Source: Candidatus Thorarchaeota archaeon (GTDB lineage: Archaea; Asgardarchaeota; Thorarchaeia; Thorarchaeales; Thorarchaeaceae). From it: a stretch of 64,000 bases of DNA. A program made the position numbers and the translations under genes. Position 1 is the first letter of the stretch, and each line of letters begins with the position of its first letter. The DNA is taken from the NCBI GenBank assembly GCA_013388835.1, contig JACAEL010000006.1, forward strand, positions 1-64,000, read 5' to 3'. Of this stretch, positions 15,059 through 51,116 are shown one piece after another. The notes under the pieces were generated by a model. It was not told the origin of the DNA and did not search any database. It was given only the letters and a program-made list of their open reading frames with translations.

Positions 15059-17122
15059 CTAGTGCTCCCCTTCTCTTCTATATCGTTCTATCAGTTCAAC
15101 CAGATCCTCCTCCCCTTTCTGTCGGGCCTTCTCTCTCACCTCTTTCAGGAACTCTTGAAACGTGGTTTCAAATCTCTTTCGACTGATGAATGCGAACTCG
15201 TCCACTCTACGAAGCTCAACATTGTCGGCACTGATGACAGGAATCCCTGCTGTTACAAGCTCCTCCTCTGCAAGATGAGAAAGGGGTGTGTTCACAATTA
15301 CCGCACGTATGCCTTGTTCTATCAGTAGTCCCGCAGTCTGCACACCTCCACCGCTGGCATCCTCGAACAAGACGATGTCTTTCTCTCGAAGCCCAACAGT
15401 CTTGCAGTAGTCTTCTATGCTCTCTCTACTGAATTGTGGCACCACCTTGACAGCAATCATGTCCCCCTTGATTTCACGGCGCTTCACGCCGCGCAGGAGC
15501 TCTAGGCGCCTATGGAGTTCTCCGACATCCCCCCTGAGACGGTCCACTTCTTGTCGTAGGGCATCTATCTCAGACTGTTTCTTCACAACCTCCCTGTCTC
15601 TCTTCACTCTCCAGTAGTTCTCTCTGTTGACAATCTCTAGGCTCCTCTCAAGCTCACTCTCCCTGAATCTCAGAAAGTCCACCGTATGCTGAAGGTCTTC
15701 TAGCCTTGCAAGAAGCGCCCTGTTCTGTGCTAAGGCCTCCTCTAGCCTGTTTCTTATCAGATCGACTGAAACCTCTTCTGAGTGTTCAGGCATCGGTTCC
15801 TCTTCAGACACCTCGGGGGTCTGCGTTCCATGGCGCATGAGCGTCCCAATGGCCTCGTTCATCTGTACGCCTCTGGCCACAAGCGCCTTGAGGTGCCTCC
15901 GATCTATATTCAGTCCTTGGCTTCGCACGTGGTGGTCGACCTGCTCCAACTTGGGCAAGAGGCTTCTGTACGCGTATACAGCGGCAGCCAGAGCATCCCT
16001 CTCATGTGCATTGGAGATTCGGACCTTGTGAGAGAACTCTCTGGCAGTCTCTTGCTTCTCTGACACCGGTACTGGCTTTCCCGGCGTGTAGATTTCCGTG
16101 TCAAGTGTGGCGGCGATTTTTCGAATCATGTGAGGGACTGGCAGTGTGTCCGTGGCAATTATGACTGGTATACCACGTTCATACACCTTTCTGATTATGT
16201 CTGCCCTGGTCAGTCCCTTCCGGCTCTCCAACAGCTGTATTTCACCTTCAAAGTCTATCAGACAGATTGCTGCAGTGGTGCCGGGGTCCAGTCCTAGAAT
16301 GAAGTACTCGGCCTTCGTTTCGCTTGTGACCGTCATGGGTTCCAACGGCAGGAACTCGGTACGTTTCTTGATTGGAGTGACTATCACATTGTAATCTCCT
16401 CCGTGCTTCTCTTCTACCAGCCCTCGAATCACTGGCAGCGGAGCATATGCTACAATTCGGGAACTAGAATAGCCAAAGTCAGACGTTCGCACATCAAGCT
16501 CGAACTCTATCCCTGCCGTCTTGAGTTGGGATGCTATGAATCGGGTCACCTGCTGTATCTCTGAGTGTATCTTCCTCCTGTAACGGTTTACACTCTGGCC
16601 GCCTCGTCCCATCTTCCGTGCTCTTGTGACCTTGACCTCTGTCTGTTCCCCAAAGCACTCCACCAGATAGCCCACACCCATTGACGCCAGAGTCGCAGCA
16701 ATTCGTGCTGACTGCAGTGGGTCGGGTTTCCCCCTGACCCCGACTCGATATTGTTGTGCAAGAGACCTCAGCGACTTCTGGTGGGGCGGGATTCCAGTGA
16801 CCTGCACCAGCCTTGTTTCAACCGGGAGTCTGTCAACGAGAGAAAAGAGCGACTTGGCATCTGGAACAATCTCAAATATGTTGTCTGTGGCCAAGAAACG
16901 GGGCATCACTTCGCGTACGGTTCTCAGCAGGTCTCTTCTAGACACCTCTGGATACTCTCTCACCACAGACCCATTGTGTAACACAACGCACGCGAACTTG
17001 ACCGGCGTCTTCGAACGTGGACTGTGAGACGGAAGTACATCGAATCCGACAACGAGGCCGTTCTGACTGTCGACTGGGCTCAGCACACAGACTACTCCTC
17101 TGGAGCACCTATAAGCATTCAC
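15059..17122 (-). CDS. DUF460 protein (RNase H-like fold with coiled coil)
   Basis: This protein of about 687 residues of archaeal family DUF460 (COG2433) is of unknown function. Around residue 275 an RNase H-like domain starts with YFILGLDPGTTAAICLIDFEGEI, continues with PVIIATDTLPVP and ends NAHERDALAAAVYAYRS, giving an Asp/Asp/Asp-type acidic set. A predicted coiled coil follows (about 455-570, EEALAQNRALLARLEDLQHTVDFLRFRE onward). The C-terminal part has KDIVLFEDASGGGVQTAGLLIEQGIRAVIV. The start at 17122 is a GTG; the in-frame GTG at 17086 is an alternative because a TATA-like CTTATAGG lies between them. Confidence 0.82.
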   Translation of the reverse strand: MNAYRCSRGVVCVLSPVDSQNGLVVGFDVLPSHSPRSKTPVKFACVVLHNGSVVREYPEVSRRDLLRTVREVMPRFLATDNIFEIVPDAKSLFSLVDRLPVETRLVQVTGIPPHQKSLRSLAQQYRVGVRGKPDPLQSARIAATLASMGVGYLVECFGEQTEVKVTRARKMGRGGQSVNRYRRKIHSEIQQVTRFIASQLKTAGIEFELDVRTSDFGYSSSRIVAYAPLPVIRGLVEEKHGGDYNVIVTPIKKRTEFLPLEPMTVTSETKAEYFILGLDPGTTAAICLIDFEGEIQLLESRKGLTRADIIRKVYERGIPVIIATDTLPVPHMIRKIAATLDTEIYTPGKPVPVSEKQETAREFSHKVRISNAHERDALAAAVYAYRSLLPKLEQVDHHVRSQGLNIDRRHLKALVARGVQMNEAIGTLMRHGTQTPEVSEEEPMPEHSEEVSVDLIRNRLEEALAQNRALLARLEDLQHTVDFLRFRESELERSLEIVNRENYWRVKRDREVVKKQSEIDALRQEVDRLRGDVGELHRRLELLRGVKRREIKGDMIAVKVVPQFSRESIEDYCKTVGLREKDIVLFEDASGGGVQTAGLLIEQGIRAVIVNTPLSHLAEEELVTAGIPVISADNVELRRVDEFAFISRKRFETTFQEFLKEVREKARQKGEEDLVELIERYRREGEH

Positions 17123-17199
17123 TCAGTGGTCTTGCGAGTACATCTCCAAACAGCAAGTATAATAAAGCCCTGCTTGAGCAACGAGTCTATCTCTGCGAG

Positions 17200-17490
17200 G
17201 TGTTACAACTGTCAGAAACACATCATGCAAAGGACGATGACTCAGTTGTCCGCATTGGAAGTGCTCTGTCATCAAAGACCCGCCTCAAGATTCTACGACT
17301 CCTGCTCGACGGAGAGAAGGACGTGACACGAATTGCCCAACACCTTGGTGGAACCGAAGCCAATGCAAGTGCACAAATCAAGATACTCAGTGAGGCAGGC
17401 CTTCTGGGCTGTCGATATGAACCCGGCCAGCATGGTTTGAAGAAGATTTCGTGGACCAAGGTGAAGAGAATCATAATCGATCTCGAGTAG
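17200..17490 (+). CDS. ArsR-type winged-helix transcription regulator
   Basis: This 96-residue protein carries a winged-helix domain, VVRIGSALSSKTRLKILRLLLDG then VTRIAQHLGGTEANASAQIKILSEAGLL (recognition helix) and a basic wing YEPGQHGLKKISWTKVKRIIIDLE. It probably binds DNA as a dimer, and no metal cysteines are seen, so the effector is unknown. TATAATAAA at 17158-17166 lies about 37 bp before the GTG at 17200. Earlier codons in the frame would cover this promoter. It is divergent from DUF460. Confidence 0.72.
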   Translation: MLQLSETHHAKDDDSVVRIGSALSSKTRLKILRLLLDGEKDVTRIAQHLGGTEANASAQIKILSEAGLLGCRYEPGQHGLKKISWTKVKRIIIDLE

Positions 17491-17619: not shown

Positions 17620-17809
17620 TCCAATACCGTTCAATCATAGTTGGACAATCCCGGATACAGGAGCCTTGTCGCTCCCAGATGACGGCACTGTGGTCAATCC
17701 TTGAGGTCTTATGAAGTGTCGAGTCGCCCTCCATCTCTGTGTATACATACGTTGGTATGTAAGCACCATGCAATGCATACTCGAGGCCGTCCGACTTCCG
17801 GGCTGCTGC
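17620..17809 (-). repeat. Copy A of a 190-bp repeat shared with the third MCM intein
   Basis: This noncoding gap contains a sequence clearly homologous to 45151-45343 inside the third MCM intein, in the same minus orientation. By hand alignment of the core (17657-17730 against 45187-45260) about 64 of 74 bases agree. An open frame of about 75 codons persists on the minus strand (AAARKSDGLEYALHG, then STLHKTSRIDHSAVIWERQ), matching the intein stretch AAAAKAESLGH and STLNETSRSDPSAVFRERQ, but with no plausible start. Homology fades at about 17620 and 17809. The rest of 17491-17844 shows nothing else I can name. Confidence 0.75.
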
Positions 17810-17844
17810 GGAATACCAATCGACTCAGGATTGAGGAGTCTAGC

Positions 17845-18447
17845 CTACGGCGAAGGCGGACCACCAGAGAGGTGGAGTTTCCACCTTTGGATTCTCTTCA
17901 GTATGTTGTCTCTTTGATCTGATGTGATTGGTTTTCCACCTCTGCTTCTCAGAAATTTCAGCACAATGTCCATGTCCCGCGAAACCTTCTCGTTCGGGCT
18001 ATGAGGGTCAATTAAATAGTCCTTTGCTTCTTGAACAAACTCCGCCAAGACTTCTGCTGACGCGCTGCCTGTGCGCAGTTCGCGGACAATCGGATCCAAG
18101 ACCCTTGCAGCTGTGGCACTGATACCTTCTGGCCATTCCTTTACCTCTCCGGCCTCGTCTGTTCTCTTCGTGCCAACGTTACTTCGGCGTGACTGCACGG
18201 TTGATGAGGTTTCGTCAGATCTCTCAGGCTTGATGCCCAGACCAGAGTCTCCCGTGTCCGAGCCTCCTCTGCTCTCGGATAGAGTAACGCCGCGAGCAGA
18301 AGGTCCAGATTCCATGTCGCTGGCAGTGGACTCCAATGCACGGCCCATAATCGTTCTCAGTTCACGAAACTGTTCAAAGAGCTCAACAAGACTGGTCTGA
18401 ATCTCATCTAGCAGTCTGTCGAGGTCGGATACCTTGCTAGCAGTCAT
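17845..18447 (-). CDS. Unknown 200-residue protein coupled to HerA-NurA
   Basis: I do not recognise this protein. Residues 1-40 are helical with heptad leucines (DLDRLLDEIQTSLVELFEQFRELRTIM). Residues 45-105 are a low-complexity Ser/Gly/Glu/Arg linker, and 106-200 form a helical domain (ISATAARVLDPIVRELRTG, VLAEFVQEAKDYLIDP) ending in a conserved-looking basic segment FLRSRGGKPITSDQRDNILKRIQRWKLHL. The ATG overlaps the preceding 37-residue gene by ATGA, so it is the last gene of the pyrG-nurA-herA operon and may assist DNA-end processing; that is inference from context only. Confidence 0.7.
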   Translation of the reverse strand: MTASKVSDLDRLLDEIQTSLVELFEQFRELRTIMGRALESTASDMESGPSARGVTLSESRGGSDTGDSGLGIKPERSDETSSTVQSRRSNVGTKRTDEAGEVKEWPEGISATAARVLDPIVRELRTGSASAEVLAEFVQEAKDYLIDPHSPNEKVSRDMDIVLKFLRSRGGKPITSDQRDNILKRIQRWKLHLSGGPPSP

Positions 18448-43908: not shown

Positions 43909-46900
43909 CTAGCTCTGAGCTCGCTTCAGCTTCCCCTCACGTGGGTTGAAAAGAATGCCTTCAGCAACCAGCTTCCGGACTACCTCTTCGGCCCTTTCGC
44001 GAGGAAGCCCCATACTCGCAACTCTCTGGAAGAGAGCGTCCTCGCTAACCACCGAAGAACCTTCTGCCTCCAAGTCCTTCATTGCCTTTATGATGATGTC
44101 CGATGAACTCCGCTGTGAGGCACTCATCTTGGAAACCAGCCGGTCGATGTCGATTTTTCCGGTCACGCGGTCCAAAGCAACCATTCGGAGTGACTCTTCC
44201 ATGAGCCGGACGGCGGCCTGAGCGTCTTCTCTTGTCACCTTGTCGCGCAGAGCCATCCTGGCACGTGCTTCCGCCAAGCGCACCAACGCTTCGAGTTGGC
44301 GCGCAGTTATCGGAACAGGGGCAGCACCACCCTCAGCAGTCTTGCGAAGGTCGACATAGAAGTTCTCAATCACCTCTGCGGCCTCAGGAGTCAACTGTGG
44401 GACCACTTGGCGGTTTGCATAGCTGATATACTTCTTAAGAAACTGGGGGTCGATTGGTGGGGTCTTCTTTGCCTCGGGAACTTTCCTCTGATGCATCCCA
44501 AGAATGAAGCGAGCAAGCTCTCTGTCTTTCGTTGCCTCAACCGTGTCGACAAGCACCCAAATGAGGTCAAATCGGGAAAGAATGGTGAATGGGAGCTTTA
44601 TGTTGTCTTGTACAGACAGCGACGGCTCATATCTGCCAAGTGTTGGATTGGAGGCAGCGATAATTGAGGTGCGGGCGTTGAGGGTGGCTACAATCCCTGC
44701 CTTGGCTATGCTTACCGTATTGTGAAGAGTAGTCCCTTGACTGACAAAAGTGTGCTCGGGTTCCACCGTTACATCGTACACATACTCGGTGGCAAATGGG
44801 CCCTTGTTCTCCACTGTTTCAGTTTTCTCGACGCGCAGCCATCGAAGGTTACCGTCTAGGAGCGACTCCATTGCCATGATCCGGACTGATATCTGATCAA
44901 TCTCATTCTGGATGGAAATCCGCAAGTCCTCAACTGCCCTGTGAACTGTGTCAGAGTCCAGACCACCGCGATCCAGACTGCTGATGAACGATTTTCGCCA
45001 TCCTGTAGTCTTGGCTGCCGTTTCTTGAGACCAGCCAAGAATCGCTCTCATCTCCCTAGGTGACTCTGGTCTCCTCGACAGCGTTTCACTTGCTTTCAGG
45101 AGGGCAGCCTTGATTCTCTCAAGATGCTCTCTCAGCAGAGCTCTTGTGACTCCATACCGTTCATTCTTGGGTAAACAAGGTTTGACACAGGAGTCTTGTC
45201 GCTCCCTGAAGACGGCACTGGGGTCACTCCTTGAGGTCTCATTAAGTGTCGAACCGACCTCGGGAGTTGTGTGACCGCACAGAAACATATGAGCACCACC
45301 CTCCGTATGTCCAAGACTCTCCGCCTTCGCTGCAGCTGCTGCCAACCCTCCGTTTGTGGTCGCCAGACTAGACCAGACCCGTGAGAGTCCGACTCTCCTA
45401 TAGAGGTCGCCAATCATTGGAACGAAGTCTGGCGGAAATGGGTCGTCACTGTGTACCAATTCAATCGAGTGACTCAGAGCCAGATTGGTCTCGTTGGCAT
45501 GTGAATTCAGTGGGTCTACAACGAGTTCTTTGAAGACTGGAAGACTATCATGGCAAATGTGAACTCTGAATAGGTCATTGTTAGTGCTACGCACGATATG
45601 ACTCTGTACCCCGATGCAGAGGAGCAGGTCTTGATAGTCCTGCGCAAGACCCCATGATTCAGTACGATAGCACAATCCCTCCGATTCTCTACTGCCATCG
45701 ATGAGAAAGGCGGACTGCAAGAAGACTCTTGCGGCATTCTCACCAGAGACAAACAACTGGGGCGGTATGCGCCGGCTGCTTGCGACACTCGTAATCTCAG
45801 GAAAGTTCTCTTGCAAGAACTCCATCAGGGCGGATGAAACGAAATGGAATGCCGTATCGTTCTGCATATGGTCGAATCCTTCGAGCCCAAACAAACTACT
45901 CATGAGATGTCTTATGTCACTCCGAATGAACTCCGAAGTCGTCGAGAAGACAATCTCTGCAGAATCCTCTTGGTAGACACAGCTCTCTGTAACAAGATAC
46001 CCAAGTAGACGGGCTACTTCGCTGGTGAGCCTCGATGGCAAACGTGTTTCTTCTGAGAAATGGCGAGATGCAGGGGTCAAGATCAGCTGTGCCCCCGGGT
46101 TGTGACCACAGGGCATCTTTAGAGGAGCGGGTACGAACTGACCAACCTTGATGCGGTCCGCAGGTAGTGTTGTCATCGCGCCATCCCTAAAGACGAAGAG
46201 GGGATGATTTGGTGTGACCATCACATCTCGGCCGTTGTCGAAGGTTATTCTGATGAAATGGTCTGGCGCTAGGTGCCGGCTGATTCTGTCCAAGGTTGTT
46301 TCACGGACTTCATTAAAGTCCGTGGTGTAGATGCCAATACCCATTGATGCAGTATCAAGTATCTCGCAGTTGATGCCCTGTACTACTCGTTCAGGATGCT
46401 CTGCAAACAGCCTGTCTACAAAGGGACCGATGGGGGACCGGACTCCGTTAGAGAACAGTATCTCTGTGGATGGATGAAAACTGTGCTGCTCCATGGCCTC
46501 ATGGATGGCAGTACGGTCATCGGGATCCATCTTGTCAAACTCGTCAATACAGTTGTGCACTACTATGCCGTCAGCAAGGAAATTGTGGTGACACTTGACA
46601 CGCAGGTCATAGACCCATCCGTCGTAATGCTCCTCCTCAATGGAAATCACCAGGTCTAAGAAGTAGTCGCGCTTCAACAGTCTACAGATCTCGTTAGCAA
46701 TAGTAGGTGGTAGTCTATCACCCATCAATTCTGCCACATGGGACAGTTGTCGTCTTGAGGGGCGATGCTCTAGAGTCCTGTACACATGAGGGGCATTGCG
46801 GATGCCTCTGTGAAGAAACTCTGACGTGCATATTGAATCAAGCAGACTGCCAATCTGGGCAACCTTCAGACGAGGAAGCTTCTCGCCAGAGGACGAAGCG

Positions 46901-49900
46901 CTGTGAAAGTCATGGGGGACTGACGCCTTTCGAACCTTGACGCTATAGTCCCTGGTTGAGGCACAGAGAAGCTGCACATCTGTTCGCCCGTTTATCCTGA
47001 TGATGTCAGCACTCTCTCGTTCCCTGAACTGCGCATAAACGTCCAGCCTGCGCAGAATCAGAATGAATGCCAGACTTCGTTGCTTGTCGTTGGAGAACAG
47101 AAAGTCAATGAGCACGGTCTTGAATTCCCTGCCGCCTCTTGTTCGACTCTTCACGGACACACGCCCACGCGAGTCGAGTGCTCCCGCGACAAATGCCTTG
47201 ATGCACTCTTGAGGAAGCAGTAGTGTGTTCATTAGGTCATCAGCAAGGAAATAGTCTATGAGATAGGCCAAGAGGCTCGAGTCTCGGTGAGATGTGGTCC
47301 TTTCCGCGATGACGACCTGCGCATCGTTCTCCGATGACACTATCCGACAGAACTCGTCGTAATCAAGGTAAGAAACTGAACGCAGTGCGTTCTTCAAGTT
47401 CTCAATCGTGTCGTCACTCGTAAAGTATTGGGGCTCACAGAAGAGGGACCTATGTTCCCGTGCATTATAGATTCCTTCCCCGTGGACAAACCCAATCAGG
47501 TAGGCGAGTTCAGGAGTGACTTGATTTGTCTTCAAGAACTCAACACTCTTGCTGGTGCGGCCGTAGCCTAGAGATTTCTCTCTCCATTCTGACATCAGTC
47601 CAAGTTGTCTTAGTACTTCCTTCAGCTTGCCCACTCTGAAGTGTTGCATACCCGACAGAATCTGTTTGTCTACTCCAAAGCGTCGGTTGAACTCGTCTAG
47701 TGTCTTGAAGACCCGAAGGACTCGCTCCTTCAGAATGTCCTTGTCTTCCTTGTTAAGTACAACAATCCAATCATCGGGTACAATGTCAAAGACATAAATG
47801 CAACTCGACGTGTCGCTCAGCTTCAGAGGAGAGAGAATCAATTCACCAGTTTCACAGGAGCTGATGTCCTTCCACTGTAGTGTGTTTCCATCCACCACCT
47901 TGTGGTCAGGAGTCAACCTAATCTCAAAGCCAGAGGACAGCTTGGCTCGGATTAGAGGCCCAGAATACCACTTGCGTCGTATCAGGGTGCACTCGTCGTC
48001 AATCGATTCAAGACGATCAATGTCGAACGCCTTGACATGCCCTTTGATGGGACAAATCTCGACAATCTCACCACCACTGATGGCACTCTTCTTCAGCGTT
48101 TCGTCGAAGAGACTGTCTACAGAAACAATACGATTGTCAAAGATGACCTTCGTGCTTGGATGCAGACAAGCAATGCCTTGGTCTGCGAGTACCAGAGCAC
48201 CTGCCTCAAGGGTCATCGCACCAGTTTCGGTGTCGTGTACAACGGCTGCAGTAAGACCCGCAGCGGTGGTTCCTTTGCCCGAAGTATACAGTGCTCTTGA
48301 GGCCAGACCAGTCACGAACTTTAGCAGCTGACTATTGTGGAGAATCAGATTGCCATTTGCAAGCAAGAAGTGCCCATCCTCGGTACCAATGTCATAGACA
48401 GTTGAAACATGGTCAACGTGCTCAATCTCAGTCACCCTATCCCAAAACACGTCAGATGTCGCCAAGGTTTTGAGCGAGGCCAGTGCGAAGGAGTGAGAGT
48501 TATCCCGGCCCAGTTGTACAATTCGCTCAACGAGACTCTGCAGGTGTTTCCGACCGATGCTCTGTTTGCGCGTCAATTCCCGGACTTCTTCAAGAAGATT
48601 CATTGATGGCCCGTCGCTATGTCCTCCGACAAGCAAGTCATTGGTTGCTTGAGTGCACAGGTCACCAAAGTTCGGGACAATGTCCCTCAGCTGTTCCCTC
48701 TGCGAGACCGAGTGTGCGCTCGCGCTCTCAAGATGCTCTCGTATGGAGGATGAAACGAGTCCGATTTCATTCTGGAAGCGAAGCACTTCCTCTCCTGCAA
48801 TGACGATTGTGTGGCGTTTCCTACTCCTGTGAGACCCCGGTTTCAGTGGCGTCGTACTGACAGATGCGAAGACTCCGAAGGTGGATAGCAGGTCTGACAA
48901 TTGGTATGCAAGGTCCCTGTTCTCTGTTGCTGCACAGATGCTTGCATCGTCTTCTATCCAGCCACTCTCAATGAAGAAGGTTGATAAAATGGAACGCCTG
49001 AACGCTCTTGGTGCAGCCAATAGGAATCCAGGTAGTTTCTTCTCAACTCCAGTTCCAAACAGCGTCAAGAACCATTGACCAATCGTCGGCTCATGTATGT
49101 GATTGCCCTCCAGAGAAACCGAAACCAATCCGAATATGCTTCTCAGGTCTGAATCCAGTTGACGCTTCGCTTCAGCGCCAAGGTTGCGGAAACATACCGT
49201 ACTATTATCGACATGACCTTCTGACAAATAGAAACCAACGACTCTTCCGAGTCTATCATCAAGAGGTACGATTCGGGGGGGCCAAGCACGGTCACACCCC
49301 GGTCCAGCCCATGAGGGATTTGGGAGGACAAGTGGAACGGTTGTGCAGCCTTGCACCGACGTCGGAACAACACATGTGGTTGCGACAGGGCAACTGACTA
49401 ACAACGAGGAGTGCTGGATACGGGACATTTGCCCGGATTCGACACCAAGGACTGAAAGACCGTTGCACGCCAGCGTCTGTTCCATGTTCAGGCCGGTGAA
49501 GCCTTCGTCAGGGAGCTCGATTGACCGTGCAATGGGCACATAGGTGCCAATCTCGAGACCTTGGGCAGTGAGAACCTGCAGGCAGCCGTTTCTCAATGTG
49601 GACACTGAGTGGTCGGGAGTCATACTCACGGTGCGTCCTGTTGCAGTGTGGATTCTAACCAGTCTGTCTGCCTTATGTCGGCTGACTTCCACTATGCGGG
49701 ATATCCTGGTCTTGAGGCTCGCAGGACTAATGGACAAGGTATGAATAGCGACGCCTTCTGGTAGTCGCAGCACCTCTGTGCCATTCTCAGAGATGACCAT
49801 GCAAGAATACCTGCTCAACAGATCATCAATGACCTCACCAATCCTTCGTACATTCCAGCTGCCACCCGAGAATGCTGTTTCTCTGATGAAGACATACTCA

Positions 49901-50940
49901 TTGCCGGAAACACTCTTTCCGGTTCCGGGGTCGCCTACCATCAGGATATTGGAGCGTCCTCTAAGTCTGGTACCATCAGGAAGGACCTTTGAAACACCTC
50001 CGAATAGAAGGAGTGCTATCGACTCTTTCAGTGCTTCATGGCCTTGGATTGCAGGCGCAATCGAAGCGCATATGCGCTCATGCACATACGGATCCCGTGA
50101 CATCTCTTCGATTCGTTTCATATCCTCCGGTGTCAGGTCTATTTCCTCATACTCCTTCTCAGTAATCTCAACTCCGTTCGCCTCTATGAACACGTTGAAC
50201 GTGGCCAGTCTTCCCCCTTTTCGTGAGAAGTCAGGGGTAGTACGTAGAATACCTGTGATCTTGACGAGATCGCCGGGCCGGGATATGTCTACAATATCAC
50301 CTTTGAGAATCACATCAACTGAGCGCGGCATCTGTCCGGGAGGCAACTCCTCTGGCGACTCCTGTATGCGAACCTTCTGCCAGTCAACGAAAGTTGATGC
50401 CTCTGGAACTAGCTTGACGGGCGTCTTCTCCATGCAGGTGGGACACTCGTGTGGTTCAGTGTATCTCCCGTCCTCCTGAGTCACTGGAAAGAGACCCCTG
50501 TGTTTCTTGCAGAAGAACTGAGCCTCCACCAGGAGGGGTTTCACTTCACTAGCACGCATCATTATTCCGCTGATGTGAATGAGGCGACCAATGTGCTTGG
50601 ACCTGAGAGCTCTCAGTGGCACATGGTCAGGGTAGTTGACTAGCCTTAGCCGTAGGATATCTCGACCTACGCGGGCAACATAGTCTGGATCCTCGACATT
50701 CAGTACGGATACAAGTGCTCTGTGTCCAGCATCGAGGAAGGCGTCAGGGTCTTGTTTGGCATCAACAACAAAGGCGTTGTCGAATCCAATCAAGTCTTGA
50801 AAATCGACCACCAGTGATGTTTCTTGATACAATGACATGCTACGAATGCGAGACCGATAGGTGCTGTTGCCCTGTTCATCCCTGTATCCCTTCAGGAATG
50901 CCTCGATTCGCTCCTGTATGCTGTTGTCCTGTTCATCCAT
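43909..50940 (-). CDS. mcm: Replicative helicase MCM, interrupted by three inteins
   Basis: The precursor is 2343 residues, of which about 689 remain after splicing, the usual archaeal MCM size. The N-terminal domain has FCKKHRGLFP...HECPTCMEKT (zinc site) and GQMPRSVDVILKGDIVD. The AAA core is split: Walker A NILMVGDPGTGK plus SQLLKFV, Walker B CIDEFDKMDPDDR, sensor ASNPTLGRYEP, Arg finger SRFDLIWVL, and a C-terminal winged helix. The ATG at 50940 starts the conserved domain. The frame is open 53 codons more (to 51099), but that part is not MCM-like and probably is leader after the TATA at 51117-51127. Order: GINS-mcm-hel308. Confidence 0.95.
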   Translation of the reverse strand: MDEQDNSIQERIEAFLKGYRDEQGNSTYRSRIRSMSLYQETSLVVDFQDLIGFDNAFVVDAKQDPDAFLDAGHRALVSVLNVEDPDYVARVGRDILRLRLVNYPDHVPLRALRSKHIGRLIHISGIMMRASEVKPLLVEAQFFCKKHRGLFPVTQEDGRYTEPHECPTCMEKTPVKLVPEASTFVDWQKVRIQESPEELPPGQMPRSVDVILKGDIVDISRPGDLVKITGILRTTPDFSRKGGRLATFNVFIEANGVEITEKEYEEIDLTPEDMKRIEEMSRDPYVHERICASIAPAIQGHEALKESIALLLFGGVSKVLPDGTRLRGRSNILMVGDPGTGKSVSGNEYVFIRETAFSGGSWNVRRIGEVIDDLLSRYSCMVISENGTEVLRLPEGVAIHTLSISPASLKTRISRIVEVSRHKADRLVRIHTATGRTVSMTPDHSVSTLRNGCLQVLTAQGLEIGTYVPIARSIELPDEGFTGLNMEQTLACNGLSVLGVESGQMSRIQHSSLLVSCPVATTCVVPTSVQGCTTVPLVLPNPSWAGPGCDRAWPPRIVPLDDRLGRVVGFYLSEGHVDNSTVCFRNLGAEAKRQLDSDLRSIFGLVSVSLEGNHIHEPTIGQWFLTLFGTGVEKKLPGFLLAAPRAFRRSILSTFFIESGWIEDDASICAATENRDLAYQLSDLLSTFGVFASVSTTPLKPGSHRSRKRHTIVIAGEEVLRFQNEIGLVSSSIREHLESASAHSVSQREQLRDIVPNFGDLCTQATNDLLVGGHSDGPSMNLLEEVRELTRKQSIGRKHLQSLVERIVQLGRDNSHSFALASLKTLATSDVFWDRVTEIEHVDHVSTVYDIGTEDGHFLLANGNLILHNSQLLKFVTGLASRALYTSGKGTTAAGLTAAVVHDTETGAMTLEAGALVLADQGIACLHPSTKVIFDNRIVSVDSLFDETLKKSAISGGEIVEICPIKGHVKAFDIDRLESIDDECTLIRRKWYSGPLIRAKLSSGFEIRLTPDHKVVDGNTLQWKDISSCETGELILSPLKLSDTSSCIYVFDIVPDDWIVVLNKEDKDILKERVLRVFKTLDEFNRRFGVDKQILSGMQHFRVGKLKEVLRQLGLMSEWREKSLGYGRTSKSVEFLKTNQVTPELAYLIGFVHGEGIYNAREHRSLFCEPQYFTSDDTIENLKNALRSVSYLDYDEFCRIVSSENDAQVVIAERTTSHRDSSLLAYLIDYFLADDLMNTLLLPQECIKAFVAGALDSRGRVSVKSRTRGGREFKTVLIDFLFSNDKQRSLAFILILRRLDVYAQFRERESADIIRINGRTDVQLLCASTRDYSVKVRKASVPHDFHSASSSGEKLPRLKVAQIGSLLDSICTSEFLHRGIRNAPHVYRTLEHRPSRRQLSHVAELMGDRLPPTIANEICRLLKRDYFLDLVISIEEEHYDGWVYDLRVKCHHNFLADGIVVHNCIDEFDKMDPDDRTAIHEAMEQHSFHPSTEILFSNGVRSPIGPFVDRLFAEHPERVVQGINCEILDTASMGIGIYTTDFNEVRETTLDRISRHLAPDHFIRITFDNGRDVMVTPNHPLFVFRDGAMTTLPADRIKVGQFVPAPLKMPCGHNPGAQLILTPASRHFSEETRLPSRLTSEVARLLGYLVTESCVYQEDSAEIVFSTTSEFIRSDIRHLMSSLFGLEGFDHMQNDTAFHFVSSALMEFLQENFPEITSVASSRRIPPQLFVSGENAARVFLQSAFLIDGSRESEGLCYRTESWGLAQDYQDLLLCIGVQSHIVRSTNNDLFRVHICHDSLPVFKELVVDPLNSHANETNLALSHSIELVHSDDPFPPDFVPMIGDLYRRVGLSRVWSSLATTNGGLAAAAAKAESLGHTEGGAHMFLCGHTTPEVGSTLNETSRSDPSAVFRERQDSCVKPCLPKNERYGVTRALLREHLERIKAALLKASETLSRRPESPREMRAILGWSQETAAKTTGWRKSFISSLDRGGLDSDTVHRAVEDLRISIQNEIDQISVRIMAMESLLDGNLRWLRVEKTETVENKGPFATEYVYDVTVEPEHTFVSQGTTLHNTVSIAKAGIVATLNARTSIIAASNPTLGRYEPSLSVQDNIKLPFTILSRFDLIWVLVDTVEATKDRELARFILGMHQRKVPEAKKTPPIDPQFLKKYISYANRQVVPQLTPEAAEVIENFYVDLRKTAEGGAAPVPITARQLEALVRLAEARARMALRDKVTREDAQAAVRLMEESLRMVALDRVTGKIDIDRLVSKMSASQRSSSDIIIKAMKDLEAEGSSVVSEDALFQRVASMGLPRERAEEVVRKLVAEGILFNPREGKLKRAQS
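44719..46482 (-). other. MCM intein 3 (588 residues)
   Basis: It lies between extein AIHEAMEQH and TVSIAKAGI. The first residue is Ser (SFHPSTEILFSNG), the last two His-Asn (QGTTLHN), and the +1 extein residue Thr. Block B is VMVTPNHPLFV. LAGLIDADG motifs are VARLLGYLVTESCVY and FLQSAFLIDGSRES, with an acidic residue retained in each. It is longer than the other two. An extra 64-residue stretch between LSRVW and GVTRALL coincides with repeat copy B (45151-45343). A helix-turn-helix-like ILGWSQETAAKTTGWRKSFI follows, probably for DNA binding. Confidence 0.9.
45151..45343 (-). repeat. Copy B of the 190-bp repeat, in frame inside MCM intein 3
   Basis: This segment matches 17620-17809 in the same orientation, about 64 of 74 bases in the best part. 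It codes for the intein residues from AAAAAKAESLGHTEGG through STLNETSRSDPSAVFRERQ to PKNERYG. Its edges agree with the ends of an insert that ordinary LAGLIDADG inteins lack at this point (inference from memory of the family). Confidence 0.72.
46552..48168 (-). other. MCM intein 2 (539 residues)
   Basis: It is inserted at Walker B: extein ALVLADQGIA, intein, CIDEFDKM. It starts with Cys (CLHPSTKVIFDNR) and ends GIVVHN, with Cys as +1 extein residue. Block B: FEIRLTPDHKVVDG. LAGLIDADG motifs: LAYLIGFVHGEGIY and FVAGALDSRGRVSV, with acidic residues kept. Splicing block F: GWVYDLRVKCHHNFLADG. Confidence 0.92.
48334..49914 (-). other. MCM intein 1 (527 residues)
   Basis: It is inserted in the P-loop between GDPGTGK and SQLLKFV. 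It starts SVSGNEYVFIRETAF and ends NGNLILHN, with Ser as first and +1 residues. Block B: VSMTPDHSVST. LAGLIDADG motifs: LGRVVGFYLSEGHV and STFFIESGWIEDD. Blocks F/G: STVYDIGTEDGHFLLANGN. All splicing residues are intact. Confidence 0.92.
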
Positions 50941-51116
50941 CAAAGCTGCTGCCTCGAAACAGTATGGAAGACCGCGACTGGATGTCCTGTGCCGTGTGTT
51001 GTGAGAGAGGTATAGCCGGCATAGAAGCCTTTGCCTATTCAAAGGCGCCTCTAGACAGATTATCCTAGGGCCAACACATGCGTTGGCGGACTTCATCAAT
51101 CTCTTCCGAATCTTAG

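What the first reader, a model, noticed from the sequence alone, without database searches (positions are those of the whole stretch)
17620..17809. A 190-bp repeat occurs between genes here and, in frame, inside MCM intein 3 (45151-45343)
About 64 of 74 core bases match between two sites 27 kb apart, in the same orientation. Over the best 25 codons I count eight substitutions and all eight change the amino acid (N/H, E/K, S/I, P/H, F/I, R/W, D/G, V/I), so the similarity is at DNA level, not kept by selection on protein. This suggests a small mobile or palindromic-type element that can land within coding sequence in frame, comparable in idea to Rickettsia palindromic elements, rather than an intein relic. 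I have not seen such an element described for this group.
Basis: partly seen in the sequence, partly recalled or inferred. Interest (0 to 1): 0.85.

Follow-up and report, generated by a model that had tools for sequence, protein, structure and literature searches.

The report
Miniature IS607 transposon carrying guide RNA
The repeat is one of about 65 copies of a tiny jumping DNA found across one family of Asgard archaea (Thorarchaeota); it has lost its protein genes but seems to have kept a promoter and the guide RNA of an RNA-guided DNA-cutting enzyme, so it may spread by borrowing another transposon's enzymes.

Summary
The repeat is real. Copies A (17626-17818) and B (45156-45348) are two of about 65 copies of a ~190-bp element in a 3.0-Mb thorarchaeal MAG. 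Some copies are 95-97% identical to the consensus; A and B are old.

It is a miniature, protein-less derivative of an IS607 transposon, read on the window's minus strand. It has no terminal inverted repeats and no target duplication. It has a GG core (GGGT left, CGGT right) and paired TTGGAC motifs 11 bp apart. The same ends bound decayed IS607 tnpA-tnpB elements in this genome and tnpA/tnpB loci in relatives.

B truly landed in frame: the orthologous MCM intein in a relative lacks exactly 63 residues (189 bp). In-frame survival is nevertheless exceptional (2 of 45 copies).

Beyond its ends the element keeps an archaeal TATA box 29 nt before a ~106-nt RNA with strong compensatory changes and a candidate pseudoknot. 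The RNA ends at the right end, where TnpB guide RNAs (reRNA/omegaRNA) lie. It occurs in 34 of 47 family genomes and 0 of 181 genomes of other Asgard families, and matches no Rfam family.

Best reading: a non-autonomous IS607 element carrying a promoter-driven reRNA that uses TnpA, and probably TnpB, in trans. RNA expression and function are inferred, not shown.

The parts
17626..17818 (-). Copy A: old, decayed full-length element, intergenic, between an ArsR-type HTH gene (17017-17490 +) and an unknown ORF (17845-18447 -). Left end (TGGT, mutated from GGGT) at 17818, right end (CGGT) at 17626.
17626..17738 (-). Structured-RNA (reRNA/omegaRNA-like) segment of copy A
   Evidence: covariance model R1, 83.1 bits, E 7.7e-18; copy A is one of the 46 sequences the model was built from
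45156..45348 (-). Copy B: full-length element inserted in frame in MCM intein 3; left end GGGT at 45345-45348, right end CGGT at 45156-45159; net insertion 189 bp = 63 codons
45156..45268 (-). Structured-RNA (reRNA/omegaRNA-like) segment of copy B
   Evidence: covariance model R1, 94.3 bits, E 1.8e-20; copy B is one of the 46 sequences the model was built from
45308..45314 (-). Surviving inner left-end motif TTGGACA of copy B (presumed TnpA binding motif)
   Evidence: read from sequence; motif defined by alignments
44719..46482 (-). MCM intein 3, host of copy B (not part of the element)
43909..51099 (-). MCM helicase ORF with three inteins (context)

Best explanation
The repeat is a non-autonomous miniature derivative of an IS607-family transposon of Thorarchaeota that has lost tnpA and tnpB but kept three things: (1) both transposon ends, for movement in trans by an IS607 serine transposase that recombines at a GG core; (2) a small archaeal promoter near the left end; (3) the right-end guide RNA scaffold (reRNA/omegaRNA) of the TnpB nuclease. 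Transcription from the internal TATA box would give a ~106-nt scaffold that runs out of the right end, so that the flanking host DNA becomes the guide, with GGG as target-adjacent motif. Loaded on a TnpB from an intact relative, this RNA would cut sites from which the element has been excised, or empty alleles, and so favour its retention. Copies A and B are old members; B happened to insert in phase in an intein and survived. Shown: element, ends, target, IS607 parentage, in-frame insertion, covarying structure, positioned TATA box, taxonomic range. Inferred: transcription, TnpB loading, effect on retention, mobilisation in trans.
For: Copies and ends: about 65 copies, many 92-97% to consensus; left end GG in 52/52 and right end C-G-G-T in 51/48/49/47 of 51, flanks random, no duplication. 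Empty sites: MCM intein ortholog in G018 has 12 residues where ours has 75, i.e. exactly 63 fewer; a tnpB-like gene split by a copy rejoins in frame at GGGT. IS607 parentage: in G010 a tnpA (NF033518 transpos_IS607, E 1e-22) and tnpB remnant lie between the same left-end boxes and right end; own-genome remnants L131/L133 hold the MerR-type tnpA start and TnpB zinc ribbon with the same end sequences. Large TnpB genes in relatives carry this right end at the stop codon; the RNA's hairpin CCAGTGCCGTTyCTGG overlaps the TnpB C-terminal codons SAVPGRT. RNA: 92.1% of cells paired vs 28-47% in slid controls, 61 two-sided changes vs 19 in shuffles, 0/500; TATA in 49/71 copies at -140 to -126 vs 0-3/71 elsewhere, about 29 nt before the RNA. 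IS607 target (G)GG and end motifs: PMC6188088; IS607 TnpB TAM GGG and fixed right-flanking nucleotide: PMC10711439. RNA presence goes with TnpB presence, 33/34 vs 6/13 genomes, p 2e-4.
Against: No intact TnpA or TnpB of this family was found in the host genome, although it is 97.6% complete and holds young copies; short-read assemblies do tend to lose repeated IS. G034 has many near-identical copies and no TnpB hit. In the tnpB loci the P1 hairpin and the 5' strand of P2 are not recognisable by sequence, so the miniature element's RNA is not a plain copy of the parental reRNA. The pseudoknot helix has few two-sided changes. The co-occurrence test counts all TnpB kinds and ignores phylogeny. 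No expression data.
Confidence: 0.78

Rival explanations
1. It is only a passive internal-deletion derivative of IS607 (a MITE/PATE-like element): the ends matter for TnpA, and the RNA and promoter are relics with no present role.
For: No intact TnpB in the host genome; G034 carries many near-identical copies without a TnpB hit; right-end structure overlaps tnpB 3' codons, so it could be inherited.
Against: Compensatory changes across genera, a TATA box at a fixed place and distance, and a P1 hairpin not found in the parents are not needed for TnpA and would decay in a passive relic.
Confidence: 0.3
2. Host-domesticated small RNA that spread on a transposon and now serves a host function unrelated to TnpB (for example regulation).
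For: Conserved promoter and structure; some insertions are shared by species at orthologous places.
Against: High, lineage-specific copy numbers with random flanks, many decayed copies, RNA ends exactly at the transposon end, co-occurrence with TnpB.
Confidence: 0.06
3. Rickettsia-palindromic-element-like repeat adapted to in-frame insertion in genes.
For: Copies B and C22 are in frame in an MCM intein and a kinase-like ORF, with one 64-codon frame open.
Against: Only 2 of 45; consensus insertion is 188 bp; most copies intergenic; no sign of protein-level selection.
Confidence: 0.03
4. Decayed intein or duplicated intein fragment.
For: One copy lies in an intein.
Against: About 65 copies with the same ends; the orthologous intein lacks the segment.
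Confidence: 0.005

Closest known systems
IS607-family transposons (tnpA serine transposase + tnpB)
   Same: GG core target, no TIR, no target duplication, multiple ~11-bp spaced end motifs, TnpA with MerR-type HTH, TnpB, structured right-end RNA
   Different: The element has neither gene; TnpB of the presumed parents is large (about 715-790 aa versus 330-433 aa reported for bacterial IS607 TnpBs in PMC11061315)
PATEs (palindrome-associated transposable elements, IS605-derived; Haloquadratum, PMC3119063; Halanaerobium, PMC7290912)
   Same: Short, protein-less, no TIR, no duplication, derived from a tnpB-bearing IS, high copy number in an archaeon
   Different: IS607 ends and GG core rather than IS605 hairpins and tetranucleotide target; conserved promoter plus covarying RNA, not described in the passages read
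IS607 reRNA / RAGATH-18-derived RNAs (PMC11061315) and ISXfa1 reRNA (PMC10711439)
   Same: Right-end scaffold RNA with stem-loops and pseudoknot, guide from the right flank, GG-rich TAM, fixed right-flanking nucleotide
   Different: No Rfam match to this RNA; here the RNA stands alone with its own promoter in a gene-less element
Rickettsia palindromic elements (from memory)
   Same: Small repeat that can be found in frame in genes
   Different: Not adapted to coding regions; different ends, origin and mechanism
IStrons (IS607/IS605 with group I intron; PMC4227781)
   Same: IS607-type mobility, insertion in genes
   Different: No group I intron found by Rfam; far too short; no splicing implied

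Membership tests
IS607 family (as non-autonomous member) | TnpA: MerR-type HTH plus serine recombinase in the parent with the same ends | tested here: met
   G010 L273/L151: NF033518 transpos_IS607 E 1e-22 (below curated cut-off because truncated), Resolvase PF00239 weak (0.0012); own L131 HTH part only
IS607 family (as non-autonomous member) | No terminal inverted repeats, no target duplication, GG core with (G)GG target | tested here: met
   52 left and 51 right junctions; relatives; empty sites
IS607 family (as non-autonomous member) | Multiple end motifs spaced 10-11 bp | tested here: met
   TTGGAC copies 11 bp apart at left, inverted at right; compare PMC6188088
IS607 family (as non-autonomous member) | An active IS607 transposase that moves it | tested here: inconclusive
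   No PF00239 in own genome; truncated tnpA in G010; movement cannot be tested here
TnpB reRNA/omegaRNA | Conserved structured RNA ending at the right end, overlapping or adjoining the tnpB 3' end in the parent | tested here: met
TnpB reRNA/omegaRNA | Pseudoknot near the guide | tested here: inconclusive
   GACAC/GTGTC helix 86% paired but few two-sided changes
TnpB reRNA/omegaRNA | Left-flank TAM and fixed right-flanking nucleotide (IS607 type) | tested here: met
   GGG at left, T after GG at right in 47/51 own and 67/75 relatives; ISXfa1 TAM GGG
TnpB reRNA/omegaRNA | Bound by TnpB and guiding cleavage | not testable with these tools
   needs biochemistry
MITE (classical) | Terminal inverted repeats and target duplication | tested here: not met
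   only subterminal inverted motifs; ends differ
PATE (IS605-derived) | IS605 hairpin ends and Y1 transposase partner | tested here: not met
   no Y1 transposase in own genome; parent is IS607
RAGATH-18 or other Rfam RNA | Match to the Rfam model | tested here: not met
Rickettsia palindromic element-like | Recurrent in-frame insertion in protein genes | tested here: not met
   2 of 45

The most novel reading that the evidence does not exclude
A family-wide lineage of mobile, promoter-driven stand-alone TnpB guide RNAs in Asgard archaea: protein-less elements kept under selection for a working guide RNA that recruits TnpB from other transposons to protect and spread themselves, in effect a minimal natural RNA-guided gene drive.
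Probability: 0.45. Interest if true: 0.85.

Novelty: new variant of a known kind. Interest (0 to 1): 0.7.

Why it matters
TnpB guide RNAs are thought to help transposons stay in genomes. A gene-less element whose promoter and guide-RNA structure are conserved across 11 genera would show that the guide RNA alone can be a unit of selection acting in trans, which can be tested directly. It also adds a large-TnpB IS607 system and an RNA family absent from Rfam to the little-known mobilome of Asgard archaea, and gives a clean case of a transposon surviving in frame inside an intein.

Tried and rejected
RNA fold of the single consensus is not better than shuffles (z -1.0; folded on the strand opposite to the RNA); only the alignment shows structure. 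Integron attC site (the paired GTTGGAC/GTCCAAC boxes match the R-box pattern): rejected as the IS607 parent explains the boxes, copies are dispersed and the boxes are not the element limits; no integrase search was made. IS200/IS605 origin: rejected, no Y1 transposase in own genome and IS607 TnpA found in a related element. IS110/bridge RNA: rejected, random flanks and TnpB parent. Group I intron/IStron, RAGATH-18: no Rfam match. Apparent truncated copies are almost all cut by contig ends. A fuzzy regex search for left ends timed out. The LE profile did not find convincing left ends for the large-TnpB loci, so complete autonomous elements remain undefined. The openness of the 64-codon frame was checked for selection between the two in-frame copies and shows none.

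Full report
1. Observation. The two sites match over 191 bp in the same orientation (69%; 80% over 113 bp; E about 1e-22 in the window). The window lies in a 3.01-Mb, 125-contig genome. A search of that genome with copy A gave 39 matches at E<1; with the consensus, 44 (only 40 of 111 candidates scored). Left- and right-end patterns gave 44 and 34 sites with zero matches for reversed controls. Merging these gives about 65 places. Many are 92-97% identical to the consensus, while A and B are among the older ones. Copies that look truncated mostly end at contig ends, as expected for repeats in a draft assembly.

2. Ends and target. Read on the reverse of the window strand, the element runs GGGTTAGCAGCAGCTGCCCAGAAGTTGGACggtcTTGGACAT ... 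GTGTCCAActttGTCCAACTAAAAATGAACGGT. At 52 left junctions GG is invariant, preceded by G (47) and followed by T (49). At 51 right junctions C-G-G-T stands at 51/48/49/47. Outside these the flanks are random and there is no target duplication. Relatives show the same: right end CGGT in 65/75. This is the IS607 pattern: GG crossover, (G)GG target, no inverted repeats, several end motifs often spaced ~10-11 bp (PMC6188088).

3. Empty sites. Copy B adds 189 bp (63 codons) to MCM intein 3. A related genome, G018, has the orthologous intein (49% and 45% identity on the two sides) with 12 residues where ours has 75, a difference of exactly 63. On contig C91 a copy splits a tnpB-like gene, and joining the flanks at GGGT restores a continuous frame (read from the sequence). 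A second in-frame copy lies on C22 in a 333-aa ORF with weak kinase-family matches (ABC1/RIO/APH). Of 45 copies with usable flanks only these two retain a convincing open coding frame. The consensus would add 188 bp. Differences between the B and C22 inserts are spread evenly over codon positions. The in-frame state is therefore survival, not design.

4. Parent. Remnants in the same genome (L131, L133, L126, L127) have TnpB zinc-ribbon sequence and sequence of this element's ends; L131 has both ends in 445 bp, and L131, L133 and L126 also keep the start of a MerR-type TnpA. In relative G010 a tnpA matching NF033518 (IS607 transposase, E 1e-22; truncated, below the curated cut-off) and a tnpB remnant lie between the same left boxes and right end. 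In eleven relatives' loci TnpB genes carry this right end close to the stop codon; where complete they are large, about 715-794 aa. They match guided-TnpB and Cas12f profiles and distant Cas12f/TnpB structures, and keep recognisable RuvC motifs by eye (VDRG, FEDL, ADVNAARN). No Y1 transposase and no serine recombinase were found in the host genome itself.

5. Internal RNA. Across 47 genomes of the family, matches concentrate on the right-end 83 bp. An alignment of 46 diverse copies supports three hairpins and a candidate pseudoknot. Of all cells 92.1% are paired, against 28-47% when partners are slid. There are 61 two-sided changes (19 in shuffles) and no shuffle of 500 reached any measure. 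The key pairs are 53-110 (CG 25, AU 15, UA 2, GC 1) and 54-109 (GC 23, AU 17). G-U pairs are frequent, which fits RNA more than single-stranded DNA. A TATA-like motif preceded by G-rich sequence sits at -140 to -126 from the right end in 49/71 relatives' copies and in 0-3/71 in other windows, about 29 nt before the RNA's first hairpin, the spacing expected of an archaeal promoter (general knowledge). In this host genome's own copies the motif is less canonical (GCATATATACC). No Rfam family matches. A covariance model finds the RNA in 34/47 genomes of this family (11 genera) and 0/181 genomes of other families of the phylum, and exactly A and B in the window apart from one weak hit. Named genomes with the right end are Thorarchaeota apart from records of isolate RBin_111, which are labelled Lokiarchaeota but correspond to G018 of the same GTDB family. 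The host genome's own name was not shown by the tools; 'thorarchaeal' rests on its family.

6. Mechanism. IS607 TnpB reRNAs run through the right end and use the flank as guide, with a GGG motif at the left for ISXfa1 and a fixed right-flanking nucleotide that belongs to the scaffold (PMC10711439). Our element has each of these at sequence level: GGG left, a fixed T after the right GG, a structured RNA up to the end. The distinctive point is that a gene-less element keeps a promoter and an RNA evolving with compensation. Transposition in trans needs only the ends, so the RNA must have been useful to the element, most simply as guide for TnpB in trans. Genomes with the RNA also have TnpB-type genes (33/34 versus 6/13, p 2e-4; 27/27 versus 4/8 at completeness >=85%). 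This test is crude: all TnpB kinds are counted and kinship is ignored.

7. Doubts. The host genome has no intact partner genes of this type. The first hairpin and one strand of the second cannot be recognised in the tnpB-bearing loci, so part of the RNA is peculiar to the miniature elements. Their single or multiple origin was not resolved. Expression and nuclease loading are untested.

8. Novelty. Protein-less IS605 derivatives (PATEs) are known in archaea (PMC3119063), and IS607 reRNAs in bacteria (PMC11061315). In the literature searches made here I found no description of IS607-derived gene-less elements with a conserved promoter plus guide RNA, nor of this RNA in Asgard archaea; the library is open-access only. 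I therefore call it a new variant of a known kind.

Noticed in passing
L271, L272, L263-L266, L270, L275-L277 (relatives): A clade of unusually large TnpB proteins (about 715-794 aa where complete) in Thorarchaeota, matching Cas12f2, guided-TnpB and weakly CasX profiles, each with this right-end RNA close to its stop codon.
   Followed up: partly
L129 (G000:C91, about 2.1-4.0 kb): A different, smaller TnpB-like gene without obvious transposon ends, split by one of the miniature elements.
   Followed up: partly
L127 (G000:C6:104500-105660): Left-end fragment, then sequence that looks by eye like an interrupted tRNA-Met gene, then decayed tnpB and right end; ARAGORN calls no tRNA there.
   Followed up: partly
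L003, L063 (G000:C71, C35): Tandem or nested copies in which the CGGT right end of one element serves as the left junction of the next.
   Followed up: partly
L155/L179/L184 and L180/L181/L191 (genomes of genus g4): Insertions with shared flanks in different species, i.e. old vertically inherited copies.
   Followed up: partly
window 43909-51099: MCM gene with three inteins, LAGLIDADG domains found by Pfam in two stretches; intein 3 is also present in G018 at the same site.
   Followed up: no
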